64,000 nucleotides of DNA from Allomyces arbusculus. Lineage: Eukaryota; Blastocladiomycota; Blastocladiomycetes; Blastocladiales; Blastocladiaceae. The stretch spans positions 620,001 to 684,000 of the forward strand of contig JADHYV010000002.1 in NCBI GenBank assembly GCA_027604705.1, in the 5' to 3' direction. Below the pieces are notes generated by a model. That model did no database searches. It was not told where the DNA came from and saw nothing but the letters and a program-made list of their open reading frames with translations. Positions 21,010 to 63,841 of the stretch are shown one piece after another. Each line of letters opens with the position of its first letter. The stretch's first letter is position 1. The position numbers and the translations under genes were made by a program.

Positions 21010-23193
21010 CTAAAGCGTGTATTTCCGCAAGACCGCGATATAGTCGGACGGGAAATGGTCGTTCACAAAAAACGGCAGCGTCATTCGGTAGACGAGCCGC
21101 AAAAACGACTCGTTGCGCATCTGCACGATTACCGACGGTGAGAGCAGGCCCGCCGGCACGAGGAAATCAATCGACCGGATCACAGTGCCTGGTGGGCGGA
21201 AGACCATCTTGCCTAGCGGTGAGAGGCTCACGAGATGACCCGGCAGCTCCGCGTACTTGTTCTCGCGGATCGGGATGACGCGTGGCACCATGTCCTTGTT
21301 GTAGACGACGCGGAACATGGACGAGTGATGCTCATGCATGAATTGCTGGAACGTTGCGTCGCCGACGCGCGGAGAGCCAAAAGTGTAGAGGCCGGCAAAG
21401 TACTCGAGAAATGGCGAGCGGGATTCGGTGAACTTGGCGAGAAATATGTGCGCAATCGCGCCTCCGAGCGAGTGACCAGCAATAAACAGCCGGATCGGCT
21501 CTTTCTGGCAAGAGTCGCTGTGAGAATCGCCGGTCATGTCCTCGACAGCGGAATCTACACCGATGTCCCGCGGTGAAATGCACTGCGACACAGGCGGCGA
21601 TGCAGACCCGCGGGTGCGGGCCATCAGCGTGTCCATGCGCCGGATCTTCACGACACAAGCGGCGATCCCGTGGTGCGCCTGCACGTACGCCGACTCTTCG
21701 CGGTTCTCGAGAGCCGTGTAGGGCTCAATCGGGTCGCGCACGGCGCGCCGAAATGCGTTCGCGAGCAGTTCCAAAATAATCGCAAACGCTCGCGTGCTCG
21801 ACACGACGGCCTGGATCAGATTTTGCATGTCTAGCTCGACCCAGACCATGCGCGGAGCCGGCTCGATCGTGACCATGGCGGAGCGGTGAGACGATGCGTG
21901 GACGCGGCGATGGGACTGGTGCTCTTTGGCCGTGGACCCGCGCCTGGACAGAGCTGACGGTCGCCGACTATGCTGAGGCGGCAGGTCCGCGTTGGCGAGG
22001 TCATGCAAGTCGGTGTCGTCGTCGATGACAGTTGCGTCAGGCCCATGCATCTCCACTGGTCCAAGCGCGTCCAAGAAGCCCTCGTGCACCATGCCCAGGT
22101 CGGCATTTGAGCCGGCATTGGCACCCGGCACCAGCTTGTAACTCATGTCCGTGATCACGTTCGAAAGATTCATAGGGTGCGTGCCGCGGAAGACGACAAC
22201 GATGGTGCCGCCCTTGGCCACCACAAAACCGCACGTATTGCGATAATGGATCGGCGTGAATGTGTCCATTTCGTAGCCAGCCTGCTCCAGCTCGGCCTCG
22301 ACAATCCCCAGGTCCTCATACGCCAGCTTGGCAGCGACAGCGAGCGAGTAGGCCGTCTTGAGATGGTATGGGATGCCCTGTGCACGGAGTGCGGCTGACG
22401 CAGATGCCGACAAATGATTTCTGGCGCGCGAGGTGGAGGGTGCCGATACGGACGACAGATCACGCTCCAATTCCGATTCATCGAGAGGATCAGCGTCGTT
22501 GTCGTCAAAGAGTCCAGCAGGTTGAAAGCACGGTTCGGCGGCGTTGACGAGCGAGTACGTGCACGACGTAGCCTCGTGCTTGCCTGACAGCGTTGCCAGC
22601 ATGCGCCGCAGAATGCGATCGCCTGCGAGAAGCACAACAAACCACTGGAAAAACAACAGTTGCGACGTCCAAGCCGCGAGCGCTGCGACAGGCGGCCAGT
22701 TCGAGATGGCGCGCGTCACGGGCGTCACGACGCTGCTAATGGCGAGCAGAACGCGCAAGAGAGCGTCGAGCGAGTGTGCGACAGGGCCGTGAATCGAGTT
22801 ACCTGAGATGGCCATGGCAATAAACAGCGGAGTGCCAACAGCGAGCACAGCAACAACGGCCGCCGAGACACGCATGCCGCGCCAGACCAAGATTGCAAAA
22901 GCGGCAAGCAACAACGACCAAAAGAGCGCAAGCATCGCAATGGTGCGAAATGGAACGCGCGGACGCGGTGGATCGGTAGGATGAATGTGCACTTTGACCA
23001 TCGAGTTGGCCACGACAATACTGTGCCGTTTCCGAGCATGGACGTGACTGCTGGCATTTCTTGCTTGCGGAACGTCGGCTGCATTTGACGTCGCGATGGA
23101 GCGCGTCGTGGCTGGACGGGGACGCACCGTGGACATGTTGTTGTTGGGTACGGCTGTAAGCCTCGACACAGCGGGAGCCGAGTCGCTACTCAT
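21010..23193 (-). CDS. Four-TM class-3 lipase, paralog 1
   Basis: Membrane-embedded serine lipase of 727 residues in one exon. An N-terminal hydrophilic region of about 80 residues is followed by hydrophobic segments: AMLALFWSLLLAAFAILVW, VVAVLAVGTPLFIAMAISG, LDALLRVLLAISSVVTPV and LAAWTSQLLFFQWFVVLLAG. The Lipase_3 domain then begins (IPYHLKTAYSLAVAAKLAYE, VVVFRGTHPMNLSNV). The nucleophile elbow is AGHSLGGAIAH with Ser near residue 575. The block FGSPRVGD, the acid in YNKDMVPR and the likely His in ELPGHLVSL follow in canonical order. A long charged insert separates the oxyanion strand from the elbow. The substrate is unknown; the architecture recalls diacylglycerol lipases, but the catalytic domain looks like the classical fungal type. 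A paralog lies directly upstream. Confidence 0.88.
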   Translation of the reverse strand: MSSDSAPAVSRLTAVPNNNMSTVRPRPATTRSIATSNAADVPQARNASSHVHARKRHSIVVANSMVKVHIHPTDPPRPRVPFRTIAMLALFWSLLLAAFAILVWRGMRVSAAVVAVLAVGTPLFIAMAISGNSIHGPVAHSLDALLRVLLAISSVVTPVTRAISNWPPVAALAAWTSQLLFFQWFVVLLAGDRILRRMLATLSGKHEATSCTYSLVNAAEPCFQPAGLFDDNDADPLDESELERDLSSVSAPSTSRARNHLSASASAALRAQGIPYHLKTAYSLAVAAKLAYEDLGIVEAELEQAGYEMDTFTPIHYRNTCGFVVAKGGTIVVVFRGTHPMNLSNVITDMSYKLVPGANAGSNADLGMVHEGFLDALGPVEMHGPDATVIDDDTDLHDLANADLPPQHSRRPSALSRRGSTAKEHQSHRRVHASSHRSAMVTIEPAPRMVWVELDMQNLIQAVVSSTRAFAIILELLANAFRRAVRDPIEPYTALENREESAYVQAHHGIAACVVKIRRMDTLMARTRGSASPPVSQCISPRDIGVDSAVEDMTGDSHSDSCQKEPIRLFIAGHSLGGAIAHIFLAKFTESRSPFLEYFAGLYTFGSPRVGDATFQQFMHEHHSSMFRVVYNKDMVPRVIPIRENKYAELPGHLVSLSPLGKMVFRPPGTVIRSIDFLVPAGLLSPSVIVQMRNESFLRLVYRMTLPFFVNDHFPSDYIAVLRKYTL

Positions 23194-23921: not shown

Positions 23922-26249
23922 CTAGTACGCGTACTTTTGCAACGCAGCAACATAATCGCACGGGAAGTGGTCGTTCACAAAGAACGGTAGCAGCAACCGG
24001 TAGACCAGACGCAGGAACGACTCATTGCGCAGCTGGAAAATGACCGTCGGAGACAGCAACCCCGCTGGTGCCAGGAAGTTGACCGGCCGCGTAATCGTGC
24101 CCGGTGGGCGGAACACCATCTTACCGAGCGGCGACAAGCTCACGAGATGGCCCGGCAGTTCGGCGTAGGGGTCGATGGGCGGCACGCGCGGGACCATGTC
24201 CTTGTTATACACGACGCGGAACATGGACGAGTGGTGCGCGTGCATGAACTGCTGGAACACGGCGTCGCCGACGCGCGGGGACCCAAAAGTGTACAGACCG
24301 TCGAAAAACTCCAAGAACGACGAGTGGCATTCCGTGAGCTTGGCGAGGAAGACGTGGGCGATGGCGCCGCCGAGACTGTGGCCGCAAATGTACAGCCGGA
24401 TCGGCTCCTCCTTTTCAGGCACGTCCAGATCGTCGTCGTCATCGGGCACCACGCCCTCAAGCGCCGTGTCCCAGTCGGTCTCGCTCGGCGTCGATGGCGG
24501 CGATGCGAGCCCGAGGGGCAACCCGCGTACGCGACGCGCCGCGGTCGGGTCAGCCGCGAGCAACGGGTCGGCGAGTGCCGGCGGGACCGCGTACAGCAGA
24601 TCGCGTTCCTCGGCCTCTTCATCGATGTCGTCGAGCGGCGGCACGTCCACCATCACGGGTACCGGCAATGGCCGCGGGGACGGCGCGACCGTCGCCTCGC
24701 CATCACTCGTGGCATTTGCGCGTCGACGACGGCGCTGCGCGAGCGCGCGCTGGTGCGCCGTGAAGACGCCCGCGAGACTCTCACGCAACCGCATTTTTTG
24801 AACGCACGCGGCGATTCCGCGGTGCGCCTGCACGTACGCCGACTCTTCGCGGTTCTCAACGGTCGTGTAGGGCTCAATCGGGTCGCGCACGGCGCGCGTC
24901 AATGTGCTCGCCAGCAGTTCCATGATCGTCCAAATGGCGCGAATACTCGAGATCAGCGCCTGGGCGACGTTGTGCATTTTCAGCTCGAGCCGGATCGTGC
25001 GCGGCGCCGGCGAAATTGTGACGACGGCAGCACGGCGTGACGAGACGTGCGACCGGCGCTGCCGCCGCCGCTTGAGTGTAGAGGTGCGCTTCGAGTGCAC
25101 CGACCGGCGCCGCGTCAGGTCCATGTGCGGCGAGAGCGGGTCAATATCGGGTTCGCCATCGTCGTCGGTCTCGTCGTCGCCCGGACCGTGTGCCTCGACA
25201 GGACCCAATGCGTCGAGAAAGCCTTCATGCACCATGCCAATCTCTGCGTCCGAGTTAGGTTCCGCAGCGGGGACCATTTCGTGGCGAATGTCGGTGACCA
25301 CATTGGCCAGGTTGAGCGGGCGCGTGCCGCGGAAGACAACAATGATGGTGCGCCCTTTGGCCACGACAAAACCGCACGTGTTGTTGTAGTGGATCGGCGT
25401 GAATGTGTCCATGTCATACCCGGCCTGTTCGAGCTCGGCCTCGACAATGGGCAGGTCCTCGTAGGCGAGTTTCGCGGCTACGGCGAGCGAGTAGGCCGTC
25501 TTGGGCCGGAACGGAATGCCCTGTGCGCGGAGTGCGGCCGATGCTGACGCCGACGACGGGTCCTGCGCGGGATCGTCGACGATATCGTCGACGTCGTCGG
25601 TGAAGAGGCCCGCAGGTTGGAATGTCGGGTCGGCCGCGTTGACGACCGAATATGTGAGCTGCGTCGCGACGTGCTTGCCCGACAGCGCTGCAAACACGCG
25701 CCGCAGGATGCGGTCGGCGGCCATGAGCACGACAAACCATGAGAAGAACAAGGCCTGCGTCGAGAGCGTGGCGAGTGCCGAAATGGGCGGCCAGTTGGAG
25801 ATGCGGCGCGCAACGGGGGTCACGACGGCGCTGACGGCGAGCAGCACGCGCACCAACGCGTCGAGCGAGTGCGCGACGCGGCGATGAATGAACCTGCCCG
25901 ACAGGGCGATGGAGGTGAAGAGGGGCACGCCAACGGCGAGTACGGCAGCAATGGCAGCAGGCGCGAGCATGCCATACCACACAAGCACCGGGAAGGCAAC
26001 GAGCGCGACCATGAACAGCAGCGCCAGGATGACGAGAACAGGAGCCGAGACGAGCGCGCTTTGCGGTGCGTCGGGATGCACGTGCACCTTGATCATCGAG
26101 TTGGCCATGACCATGCTCTGCCGGTTCTTGGAGGTGCCGGCATTGGACGCGCGCGGGACGGTCAGGCCCGAGACGGTGCCCGAGAGCGCCGTGCCCAGAA
26201 CACTGCCATTGGCCGTCCTGATCAGCGACGGTACGGGGCCGCCGTCCAT
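23922..26249 (-). CDS. Four-TM class-3 lipase, paralog 2
   Basis: Tandem paralog of the preceding gene, 775 residues from ATG 26249. The open frame continues upstream to 26747, but that part has no similarity to paralog 1 and approaches the neighbouring gene, so I take MDGGPVPSLIRTANGS as the start. Both proteins share ANSM(V/I)KVH(I/V)HP before TM1, the four hydrophobic segments, KTAYSLAVAAKLAYEDL, HYNNTCGFVVAKG and NKDMVPRV. The nucleophile lies in ICGHSLGGAIAHVF, Ser near residue 625. The charged insert before the elbow is about 60 residues longer than in paralog 1 and is rich in Asp, Pro and Arg. The lumenal or cytosolic side of the catalytic domain cannot be told from sequence alone. Confidence 0.87.
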   Translation of the reverse strand: MDGGPVPSLIRTANGSVLGTALSGTVSGLTVPRASNAGTSKNRQSMVMANSMIKVHVHPDAPQSALVSAPVLVILALLFMVALVAFPVLVWYGMLAPAAIAAVLAVGVPLFTSIALSGRFIHRRVAHSLDALVRVLLAVSAVVTPVARRISNWPPISALATLSTQALFFSWFVVLMAADRILRRVFAALSGKHVATQLTYSVVNAADPTFQPAGLFTDDVDDIVDDPAQDPSSASASAALRAQGIPFRPKTAYSLAVAAKLAYEDLPIVEAELEQAGYDMDTFTPIHYNNTCGFVVAKGRTIIVVFRGTRPLNLANVVTDIRHEMVPAAEPNSDAEIGMVHEGFLDALGPVEAHGPGDDETDDDGEPDIDPLSPHMDLTRRRSVHSKRTSTLKRRRQRRSHVSSRRAAVVTISPAPRTIRLELKMHNVAQALISSIRAIWTIMELLASTLTRAVRDPIEPYTTVENREESAYVQAHRGIAACVQKMRLRESLAGVFTAHQRALAQRRRRRANATSDGEATVAPSPRPLPVPVMVDVPPLDDIDEEAEERDLLYAVPPALADPLLAADPTAARRVRGLPLGLASPPSTPSETDWDTALEGVVPDDDDDLDVPEKEEPIRLYICGHSLGGAIAHVFLAKLTECHSSFLEFFDGLYTFGSPRVGDAVFQQFMHAHHSSMFRVVYNKDMVPRVPPIDPYAELPGHLVSLSPLGKMVFRPPGTITRPVNFLAPAGLLSPTVIFQLRNESFLRLVYRLLLPFFVNDHFPCDYVAALQKYAY

Positions 26250-26765
26250 GCTGGCGTCGTCGTTATCACTGTCTTCGTTGGGCAGTGGGTGGGCAAGTGC
26301 GGCAGTAGTTGTGCGAGCTTCTTGGTCGAAATCAGTTGGCCGATCGAAAGCGGCAGACGGCGGGGTTGGCCGATATTGGCTGGAGCAAATGCAATGAGTC
26401 GTAGTGCGCAAGAGAGTGTGGAGAGAGCGTCGTTTGCTGGCGTGCTGCTGCTGGCTCGAAGGCGACGGTCGCCACGACGTGGAGCGGAAGAGCGGGAGGA
26501 GCGAAGGCAGGGCAAGGACTTCGATGTCAACCGCCGAACACAACCAAGTGTGGCGAGCGGTCAGCCAGGTCCAGCCAAGCGGGTCCTTTGCGTGCCACCA
26601 GCGGCCTGAAAGTCGTCGTGAACACAGTGAACTACATATTGCTGACATGTTTTTTAAATACAAAGCGGCGCCGTCGCGCCCACATACGGACTGGCACGGC
26701 ACTCGCGCACAACGTCCACCCTGTCGCCACCCCCGCTGCGGCCCCATCCGCGCGCAAGTCGCGCC
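26250..26765. other. Intergenic, lipase paralog 2 promoter
   Basis: 516 bp between the lipase start and the INPP4-like stop. An open frame continues through most of it from the lipase, but without conservation to paralog 1. Confidence 0.45.
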
Positions 26766-49221: not shown

Positions 49222-49303
49222 GGCGGCGTGCCCGAGCGGTCAAGGGGGCCGACTTGCCATCGGCTGGGTTGATCCCGCACAGGTTCGAATCCTGTCGCCG
49301 TCG
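49222..49303 (+). tRNA. Class II tRNA with serine-type body and UGC anticodon
   Basis: An 82-nt cloverleaf with every stem intact. The acceptor GGCGGCG pairs CGCCGTC (one G-U), followed by discriminator G. The D arm is CCC-GAGCGGTCAA-GGG. The anticodon stem is GCCGA/TCGGC with a seven-base loop CTTGCCA, so positions 34-36 (49255-49257) are TGC, which would read the alanine codon GCA. The long 14-base variable arm (TGGGTTGATCCCGC) and the ACAGG/CCTGT T arm follow the eukaryotic tRNA-Ser pattern almost base for base. Cytosine at position 37 is unusual. No intron is seen. Identity is therefore ambiguous: body and G73 say Ser, anticodon says Ala. Confidence 0.85.
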
Positions 49304-49311
49304 GCATGGTG

Positions 49312-49317
49312 TTTTTT
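49312..49317 (+). terminator. RNA polymerase III terminator of the tRNA
   Basis: Six consecutive T residues nine bases after the tRNA 3' end, a standard Pol III stop signal. Confidence 0.8.
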
Positions 49318-60986: not shown

Positions 60987-63841
60987 ATGACCCAGTCCGA
61001 CCCAGCACCAACATCAACGACGAGCACCGAGCATGATCGACCCGTTCCATTACACACGTTGCCACCCGCGCTGCCCGCTATTCGCGCCGTGCGCCCAACG
61101 CGCCGTATCGGCCCACATTCGGCGACCAAGTTGCACAAGGCACAATCGTGGACGAGGTCGCTTCACGCCGTCGCGACGCTCGCACTCGCCGGCGGCGTGT
61201 CCATGATCCTAGCGCTCATGCTCTGCGTACAGCTCGCGCTCGCCTATATTCTCTACAGCGTCAACGTGACCGACCTGACGGCGCCCGTAGCCGCTGGGAT
61301 TGTGTTCTACGCGGTGGTCGTGTGGCGGTGCACCGCGACGCTCCTGCGCACCGCTGTGCGGATTGGCATTTGGATCTGGTCGCCGCTCGACGACGTGCAA
61401 GAGCATGATATGGAAGCGGCGGATGCAAAGTCGCCAGCAACAGCACCAGCAGGGGACGAGGAAGACGACGAGTCCACGTCGGCGCTACCTATCACGCTGA
61501 TCGTGCTCGCGCCGGGCCAGCTTCTCGCCAAGTTGCGCGTCTGGCTCATCTTCCGCATCTCCACCTGGCTCGTGTATCGGCAGTGGCGGAAAACAATGGT
61601 TGACGCGACGGGTCCGCCGTCTGGTGAGCTCGAAGTGCCCGAGAGCCCGTTCAGCAACGCGCCGCGGGATGACGACGACTTGCACTGGCAGATTGAACTG
61701 GAGCGGCACCGCATGGCGCATCGCGTCCAACATGTGCTCGATGCGTTCGTCGTTGTGCTTGTGTTCGTGCTCCCGAGCATCGTGATCTCAGCTGTCTTTG
61801 GCTTCTATGGGATCCTGTCGTTTTTGACGGCTTTCTACGTTCTGGGTACCAATGATGTCGTTGTTTCTCAGCATTGGAAATATGCTTGCTCACGATTTGT
61901 TCCCTAGATAGGCACCACGCTCGTGATTATGGTGTTCAACGTGGCCCGGCGCACTGCGCGCACCCTCGGGTTTCTCGCTGTGCTGGCCAAGGGATACCTC
62001 TCCGTGGAACGACGCCGCGCCCTCTACGTTGCCTCGGCAGGCCAGGACAACCCGAACCACATTGTCGACGCCCTGCTCGGCCAGGCCACGACCATCACAT
62101 TCTGGACGTTGTTCTTTGGGCTCTTGTTTGTCCATTCGGTATCGATTGCGCAATATTTCACCCGGAAGTCGTTTGTCGCTGACGCTCCTCGATGCGCGCA
62201 CATAGGGTCGCACCGTCATCTTGTGGTCGTTTGGCCTCATTCTCGCAGTGCTCTTGATCCTTCGCCAACACCGACTTTGGCACCGTGTCTGGCACCAGTT
62301 CCGCGGTCGCTCCGTATCGGCATCTGCGCGGCCACTCCCTGACCAGCGGTACGACGGCACCGACCCGCGCGTCGTGTGGATTGTTTTCACTGTCCGCTTC
62401 CTCGTCATTGGGTTTGGACTCGCAATGGTCGGCCTCGTCGACCTGACCAACGTCGCGAATGGGACTGCAAGGACAACCACGTCGATTGCTGAACTGCTCG
62501 CGACGGTTGGCGCGCCGCGGTGGGGGCCACTCGCAGGCGCCTACATCGGGTTCTTTGCGCTGTTTGTGTTGCAGGACTTGGCGCTCGCGCTGACGCTCCC
62601 ACCCGTTGTTGCAGCTGCTGGCGTGGTCGTTGCGATCGTTGGCAAGCTGGCCGTGGCGGGCTATGTGTGCAGCCAAATCGCCGTCGGGCTCGGACCATCA
62701 ACCATGGTCGCGCTTGCGTGCCTCGGGATTGACCTGCGTGACGGACGCGCATGGTGGACGCATCGGCCGCGCGCACCCGTTGGCGAATTCACCCTGCAGC
62801 GACACGGTCTTGTCCGACGACACGCACGCCGCAGCGCAATCATCACGGTCGTGCTCGTTAGTTTGGCCGTGGTCGGGTCCGTGGCAATCGGTTTCGCAGT
62901 CGGAACGCAGAGCGCAAGCACTGTGACTACGACGACATTCCGCAACACGACCCTCGGGACGGGCCGGTTCCCGCTATGCACGGCCACGTACGGTGTCGAC
63001 CGCATGGGCACCGCGCGACTCAACCTGGCCGATCTCACCGCATTATCTGCGGTCGCGTACAGTTCCACGAGCGACGACGCGACGACCTACCTGCACGGCA
63101 ACCCGCGGCTTGCCGACGTGCAAGTCGCGCACGCTAACCTCAACGACACGACGGGCGTACGGTTCTGGGAGTTCCGGTTCCCGTCCACCGCGCCGGGGCT
63201 CAGCGTTGTGGCGATCCGCGGCACATCGACGCTCGAGGACGTGCTCGAGGACGCACGGCTCTGGTCGACACCTCTGCTCCTACAAGGATCGAGCTATTTC
63301 GGCACGTTCTTTGTGCTGTGGCCGCGCACGGCTATGGCTGCGGTCGTGCGCGTTGTTGCGCAGTACCTGGCGTTTTCAAGGTTCCTGTACTCGGTCGAGG
63401 TCGAGGCGTATACGCGCACGCTCGTGCAGAGCGGGCAGAAAGTGCTGGTCACGGGGCACTCGCTGGGCGGTGGGCTCGCGCAGGTCGTGGGGTCGCGCGT
63501 GCAGGTGCCGGCGGTTGCGATCTCTGGTCCGGGGCTCGGCATGTCGTATTTGGCCTACGACACAACGGTCGAGGCGATTGCCAAGTGGACCGTGAACGTT
63601 GTACCGTTTTCAGATCCCGGTGCGTTGGGGGAGTATCATCCGCGGCACGCGAGTTAGTGCCTTCTAACGTGCATTCAACTTCGTCCTGATGTCGTTCGGG
63701 CTAGTCCCTATGGCCGACGATCAAGTGGCCGCACAGATCCACATCCCTTGCCACCAAGCTATCCCGTCCAACTGCCACTCGATCAAGAACACGCTCCAGA
63801 CGATCGAGGATATGTGCGCTGGGATCGGTGTCGATGCGTGA
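60987..63841 (+). CDS. Polytopic membrane protein with C-terminal class-3 lipase domain, paralog 2
   Basis: Exons 60987-61845, 61912-62138, 62206-63619 and 63705-63841 give 878 residues. It shares the first two introns with paralog 1 (phase 1 at VLG-, phase 0 at VHS-). It lacks the paralog 1 intron at VQ-DAQLW, where it reads through EDVLEDARLWSTPLL, and has instead a phase 1 intron inside the block DP-VPM. That last intron is needed: without it the frame ends at GEYHPRHAS, whereas splicing restores PMADDQVAAQIHIPCHQAIP and CHSIKNTLQTI. The elbow is TGHSLGGGLAQVVG with Ser781. Its N-terminus is shorter, the cysteine run is absent, and the C-terminus ends soon after the CHS block. Membrane segments match paralog 1 one for one as far as I can see. 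Confidence 0.85.

What the first reader, a model, noticed from the sequence alone, without database searches (positions are those of the whole stretch)
49222..49303. Serine-bodied class II tRNA carrying an alanine (UGC) anticodon
The cloverleaf is perfect and has the serine long variable arm and discriminator G73, yet the seven-base anticodon loop is CUUGCCA, anticodon UGC. SerRS recognises the variable arm and not the anticodon; AlaRS needs G3-U70, which is absent (pair 3-70 is C-G). If expressed and charged with Ser, it would put Ser at GCA codons. Class II tRNAs with mismatched anticodons (nev-tRNAs) are known in nematodes. C37 is also odd, so it may be a silenced copy, but a T6 terminator follows it.
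Basis: partly seen in the sequence, partly recalled or inferred. Interest (0 to 1): 0.7.

Follow-up and report, generated by a model that had tools for sequence, protein, structure and literature searches.

The report
Serine tRNA gene with alanine anticodon
A perfectly folded serine-type tRNA gene in what looks like a fungal genome carries an alanine anticodon, and it has one sister gene with an arginine anticodon; the pair is probably silent or weak rather than a sign of a changed genetic code, but this can be tested directly.

Summary
Window 49222-49303 (+) is an 82-nt class II tRNA gene: 23 of 23 stem pairs form, G73, C3-G70, loop CUUGCCA (anticodon UGC, C37), intact B box, T6 nine bases downstream. 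Its body is tRNA-Ser. One copy was found, with unique flanks, and one sister at C156, Ser-bodied with anticodon UCU (Arg); only these two among the catalogued Ser genes have C10-G25. They differ at 8 of 46 stem bases yet keep every pair, so the body was selected until recently. Seven normal class I Ala(UGC) genes exist. Against efficient decoding: C37 (70 of 72 ARAGORN calls have a purine) and GC-rich upstream flanks (3 of 68 normal genes reach 0.70). In yeast tRNA-Ser(UCU) is toxic unless weakened. Best reading: an anticodon-isotype-conflict tRNA-Ser paralogue, silent or weak; a product would be charged with Ser and read GCA poorly. Expression is untested. Side lead: eight Ser(ACU) genes, and no standard Ser(GCU) arm in the assembly.

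The parts
49222..49303 (+). class II (Ser-bodied) tRNA gene, anticodon UGC
   Evidence: ARAGORN; Rfam RF00005; 23 of 23 pairs
49229..49239 (+). A box TGCCCGAGCGG, with C10 (partner G25) where eukaryotic A boxes usually have G10 (consensus recalled)
   Evidence: sequence; in the class II genes of this genome position 10 is G, T, A or C with a matching partner
49253..49259 (+). anticodon loop CTTGCCA: anticodon TGC at 49255-49257, C37 at 49258
49266..49276 (+). variable-arm stem-loop (GGG, 5-nt loop, CCC)
   Evidence: pairs 46-56, 47-55 and 48-54 of alignment A1
49282..49292 (+). B box GGTTCGAATCC
   Evidence: sequence; matched by the pattern
49312..49317 (+). T6 run, possible Pol III terminator

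Best explanation
A genuine tRNA-Ser paralogue whose anticodon loop has changed to UGC with C37: an anticodon-isotype conflict gene. It belongs to a two-member sublineage with C10-G25 whose other member carries UCU. Shown: the fold, one copy found, unique flanks, a sister with intact stems, and normal Ala(UGC) genes in the genome. Inferred: the gene is silent or weakly expressed and so tolerated; any mature RNA would be charged by SerRS and not by AlaRS, would read GCA poorly because of C37, and would be outcompeted by the normal Ala tRNAs.
For: Perfect class II fold and Ser features. One copy found, flanks without another match. Seven class I Ala(UGC) genes with G3:U70. C37, against a purine in 70 of 72 ARAGORN calls; the other exception is a damaged Ala-type copy. 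GC of the 40 nt upstream is 0.70 in both odd genes, against a median of 0.45 in 68 normal genes, of which 3 reach 0.70. In S. cerevisiae a plasmid with tRNA-Ser(UCU) gave no transformants unless weakened by G9A (PMC6827378 section 14), so a fully active sister would be expected to be harmful. A human conflict gene in print is of very low abundance (PMC8450103 section 25).
Against: The B box is intact and a T6 lies at +9, so transcription is possible. GC downstream is ordinary for the window gene (0.50; normal median 0.45) and high only for the sister (0.60; 2 of 68 normal genes reach this). Missing CAA upstream says little: 42 of 68 normal genes lack it too. Both odd genes have intact stems: 2 of 200,000 trials with 8 random stem substitutions kept all pairs, so a long-dead pseudogene is unlikely. 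The sister has a purine at 37. GCA is not rare in seven Pfam-supported ORFs (79 of 552 Ala codons). No expression data were available.
Confidence: 0.62

Rival explanations
1. Active mistranslating tRNA: expressed, charged with Ser, inserts Ser at some GCA codons (and the sister inserts Ser at AGA/AGG), giving low-level code ambiguity.
For: Intact fold, B box and T6; the anticodon does not specify Ser charging (PMC6827378); a sister with another non-Ser anticodon; the codons of the sister are scarce (AGA 15 and AGG 21 of 388 Arg codons).
Against: C37; GC-rich upstream flanks; seven competing Ala(UGC) genes; the UCU form is toxic in yeast; GCA faces Ala in 2 of 2 aligned cases.
Confidence: 0.13
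2. Structured RNA kept for a non-decoding role (tRNA fragments, a TFIIIC-bound site, SerRS binding), which would explain intact stems with free anticodon loops.
For: The two genes keep 23 of 23 pairs over 8 stem differences, while their anticodon loops differ from each of the four Ser loops in the catalogue.
Against: No positive evidence for such a role; the two loci share nothing beyond 3 nt of trailer; the window gene was picked for its odd anticodon, so the contrast is biased.
Confidence: 0.15
3. Sequence or assembly error in the anticodon loop of an ordinary Ser gene.
For: A single assembly; no reads available.
Against: Two adjacent loop bases differ from Ser(UGA), in a 980-kb contig, and the sister on another contig is odd as well.
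Confidence: 0.05
4. tRNA-derived repeat (SINE) or an import from a virus or bacterium.
For: Internal Pol III boxes.
Against: No other match to the 901-nt neighbourhood apart from the tRNA part; no exact match to an internal stretch of 26-27 nt in viral contigs or in the bacterial and archaeal genome contigs (exact matching only, so a weak test); the body fits the other Ser genes.
Confidence: 0.03

Closest known systems
Anticodon-isotype conflict tRNA genes (tRNAscan-SE 2.0 'IPD'; [quoted passage not shown] PMC8450103, sections 24 and 25 read
   Same: Good tRNA body of one isotype with the anticodon of another, single locus
   Different: Class II Ser body with an Ala anticodon, plus an intact sister with an Arg anticodon
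Human tRNA-Ser(AGA) variant G35A with a Phe anticodon (AAA); PMC9956149, seen only in the start of the abstract
   Same: Natural Ser-bodied tRNA with a non-Ser anticodon
   Different: A population variant of one base; here a gene in an assembly, with its own sublineage and C37
Nematode nev-tRNAs; PMC4300185, passages and section 7 read
   Same: Long variable arm with the anticodon of a class I isotype
   Different: nev-tRNAs take Leu and occur in nematodes; this gene has Ser features in a fungus-like genome
Engineered mistranslating tRNA-Ser variants of yeast; PMC6827378, passages and section 14 read
   Same: Ser body with a non-Ser anticodon, UCU among them
   Different: Natural genes here; activity unknown
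Anticodon shifts in eukaryotic tRNA genes; PMC3923123, passages read
   Same: Anticodon substitution in an otherwise intact gene
   Different: That study reports only one shift involving a Ser/SeC anticodon

Membership tests
cytosolic tRNA-Ser (body) | class II cloverleaf with long variable arm | tested here: met
   23 of 23 pairs, 3-bp variable-arm stem
cytosolic tRNA-Ser (body) | discriminator G73 rather than the A73 of Leu | tested here: met
   G73; the five Leu genes of the catalogue have A73
cytosolic tRNA-Ser (body) | a Ser anticodon | tested here: not met
   UGC
cytosolic tRNA-Ser (body) | aminoacylation by SerRS | not testable with these tools
   needs biochemistry
tRNA-Ala(UGC) | G3:U70 and a class I body | tested here: not met
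   3:70 is C-G and the body is class II; 7 of 7 true Ala(UGC) genes have G3:U70
nev-tRNA | V-arm tRNA with the anticodon of another isotype | tested here: met
nev-tRNA | Leu identity in a nematode | tested here: not met
   G73 and Ser-like body; the genome is fungus-like by its HECT ligase, which is an inference
anticodon-isotype conflict tRNA gene | body isotype and anticodon isotype disagree | tested here: met
   nearest normal relative is a Ser(UGA) gene (63 of 82) while the anticodon is Ala; tRNAscan-SE itself was not run
tRNA pseudogene | degraded stems | tested here: not met
   no broken pair
tRNA pseudogene | no mature product | not testable with these tools
   no RNA data

The most novel reading that the evidence does not exclude
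The C10-G25 Ser sublineage is a conserved pair of SerRS-charged tRNAs whose anticodons have been freed from Ser codons, giving regulated Ala-to-Ser (GCA) and Arg-to-Ser (AGA/AGG) ambiguity, with C37 and weak promoters holding the level to a tolerable one.
Probability: 0.08. Interest if true: 0.8.

Novelty: new member of a known kind. Interest (0 to 1): 0.37.

Why it matters
If the pair is expressed, it would be a natural counterpart of the engineered mistranslating tRNA-Ser variants and would make sense-codon ambiguity testable in one organism. If silent, it shows how annotation by anticodon alone mislabels a gene. The same genome also seems to serve the Ser AGY codons mainly with A34 tRNAs, against the rule that A34 is avoided in two-codon boxes.

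Tried and rejected
SINE or repeat: disfavoured, the neighbourhood has no other match. Mixed assembly: no sign by GC alone; the odd loci (0.63, 0.62) lie inside the range of the other loci listed. Bacterial or viral origin: no exact match, a weak test. Hidden intron that would restore a Ser anticodon: no spare nucleotides, same length as the Ser(UGA) gene L002. tRNA-Sec: the acceptor stem is 7 bp and the gene 82 nt (the Sec features are recalled). Descent from Ser(CGA), the decoder of the commonest Ser codon (UCG, 160 of 368): not shown; none of the 18 places with the exact arm GACTCGAAATC gave a Ser tRNA, and the A-box patterns gave only genes already known. Genome-wide change of GCA to Ser: not supported. 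Organism: an 18S 3' motif was not found, the Rfam SSU search got no answer, and protein similarity is the only hint. A full tRNA catalogue was not obtained: one search scored 63 of 477 candidates and its list lacks the window gene, so all gene counts are lower bounds.

Full report
What is there. The window lies at C2:620001-684000 of a 25.9-Mb, 197-contig genome. ARAGORN and Rfam (gathering scores) each find one tRNA gene in the 64 kb, at 49222-49303 on the + strand. ARAGORN names it Ala(tgc), which follows the anticodon. The fold is class II: 7-bp acceptor, 3-bp D stem, 5-bp anticodon stem, 3-bp variable-arm stem, 5-bp T stem, and all 23 pairs form. G73 and C3-G70 are present, the loop is CUUGCCA, and a T6 run starts 9 nt downstream. 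The window gene, its sister and seven other Ser genes aligned on this fold pair in 205 of 205 cells, with 13 pairs changed on both sides against a shuffle mean of 7.2. The energy of the single strand is not special.

Body. The closest relatives found in the genome are a Ser(UGA) gene (L002) and the sister, each identical at 63 of 82 aligned positions. The seven normal Ala(UGC) genes are 72-73 nt, class I, with G3:U70 in 7 of 7.

The sister. A DNA search with the window gene (E up to 0.001) returns three places: itself, the Ser(UGA) gene on C52, and C156:6184-6264. The last is also Ser-bodied with G73 and C3-G70, but with loop CUUCUAU, anticodon UCU. The pair shares C10-G25; the other Ser genes of the catalogue have G-C or U-A there and the Leu genes A-U or G-C. 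Between the two, 8 of 46 stem bases differ, in five pairs, three of them changed on both sides, and none is broken. In 2 of 200,000 trials 8 random stem substitutions kept all pairs. The simulation is crude (uniform substitutions), but it speaks against long unconstrained drift. With one stem substitution 17% of trials stay perfect, with two 4% (50,000 trials each), so a recent loss of function remains possible. The match between the two loci ends 3 nt after the gene, and a 901-nt query around the window gene finds only itself and two tRNA genes, so this is not a dispersed repeat as far as that search reaches.

Likely function. Published yeast work states that the anticodon does not specify tRNA-Ser charging, and names the variable arm as main determinant for Ser and G3:U70 for Ala (PMC6827378, passages). 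The expected product is therefore Ser-tRNA(UGC); this is inference. Three things speak against efficient decoding. C37: 70 of 72 ARAGORN calls have a purine there; the other exception is an Ala-type copy with a damaged anticodon arm beside L004. Flanks: after dropping one chance call and that damaged copy, 68 normal genes have a median GC of 0.45 in the 40 nt upstream and 3 of 68 reach 0.70; both odd genes are at 0.70, while the wider loci are alike (0.52-0.66 GC over about 3 kb). Competition: at least seven Ala(UGC) genes. The other way: the B box is intact and T6 is close; downstream GC of the window gene is ordinary (0.50); the lack of CAA upstream is shared by 42 of 68 normal genes; the sister has A37.

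Codons. Seven of the eight ORFs with Pfam matches (17 ORFs scanned; the lipase-like ORF at 62221 was not used) were read mechanically and may hold non-coding ends: GCA makes up 79 of 552 Ala codons and AGA 15 of 388 Arg codons. In segments of three conserved proteins aligned to their best solved structure (cysteine desulfurase, an NVL-like ATPase, an Rsp5-like ligase) GCA occurs 2 times in 67 Ala codons and faces Ala both times; AGA does not occur. This is too small to exclude low-level ambiguity, but it gives no support to a general change of GCA.

Comparison with print. Genes whose body and anticodon disagree are a recognised category: tRNAscan-SE 2.0 marks them as unusual and probably not functional, and the human example, tRNA-Leu-CAA-5-1, is of very low abundance (PMC8450103 sections 24 and 25). 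A natural human tRNA-Ser variant with a Phe anticodon is mentioned in an abstract that I saw only in a listing (PMC9956149). nev-tRNAs share the idea but take Leu and are nematode-specific; they are weakly expressed and no misincorporated peptide was detected (PMC4300185, passages and section 7). Yeast tRNA-Ser with UCU, the anticodon of the sister, gave no transformants unless weakened (PMC6827378 section 14). Among the titles and abstract starts listed (20, 20, 15 and 8 papers) I saw none on a natural Ser-bodied tRNA with an Ala anticodon; these are capped lists, and most subscription papers are not in that library.

Verdict. A real conflict gene of the tRNA-Ser family with one odd sister, most likely silent or weak. 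The HECT ligase ORF matches budding-yeast Rsp5 (E 2.1e-132) better than NEDD4-like (1.1e-105), although fission-yeast pub2 scores lower (1.2e-98; the species of these names is recalled), so a fungus is probable but not shown.

Side lead. The AGY serine box seems to be served mainly by A34. Eight Ser genes of two body types carry ACU, the exact arm GACTGCTAATC does not occur in the assembly, and the one Ser(GCU) gene seen has a different body and lies 2 nt before an Arg(UCU) gene. A review holds that A34 should be avoided in two-codon boxes because inosine would misread neighbouring codons, while listing predicted exceptions in the cow; it also says that yeast ADAT modifies A34 efficiently if position 35 is a purine, with Arg(ACG) as an exception (PMC5372738, passages). 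Ser(ACU) has C35, so its A34 may stay unmodified. One search listed 30 of 50 papers that hold one of six strings such as Ser-ACT or SerACT; many are chance matches, but tRNA-fragment papers and a schistosome ncRNA paper are among them. I opened none of them, so Ser(ACU) genes may well be known elsewhere. Searches listed no title on this point.

Noticed in passing
G000:C16, C27 and C41, loci L034-L036, L038-L042: Eight Ser genes of two body types carry anticodon ACU (A34 in the AGY two-codon box); the exact Ser(GCU) arm GACTGCTAATC is absent from the assembly. If deaminated to inosine they could misread AGA (Arg).
   Followed up: partly
L053:17-172 (G000:C22): The only Ser(GCU) gene seen, with a different body, sits 2 nt upstream of an Arg(UCU) gene, followed by an AT-rich hairpin (TTCAAGCAAT / ATTGCTTGAA); possibly one transcript.
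   Followed up: partly
whole genome: UCG is the commonest Ser codon (160 of 368 in seven ORFs), yet no Ser(CGA) gene was found; it may have another body or be missing from the assembly.
   Followed up: partly
L004:1664-1732 (- strand): Ala-type copy with a shortened anticodon arm, called Val(CAC) by ARAGORN, beside an intact Ala(UGC) gene: a decayed tRNA for contrast.
   Followed up: partly
upstream of the tRNA genes in loci L034, L036, L038, L039, L063, L064: Short palindrome-like motifs (such as GTCAAAAATGAC) just upstream of Ser(ACU) and Ser(AGA) genes; possible upstream Pol III element.
   Followed up: no
catalogued tRNA loci: The 40 nt on either side of 68 normal tRNA genes have a median of 0.45 GC, while the wider loci are 0.52-0.66 GC: perhaps a usable marker of active tRNA genes here.
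   Followed up: partly
window 21010-23193 (-), 23922-26747 (-) and 62221-63657 (+): Three class 3 lipase ORFs in one 64-kb window.
   Followed up: no
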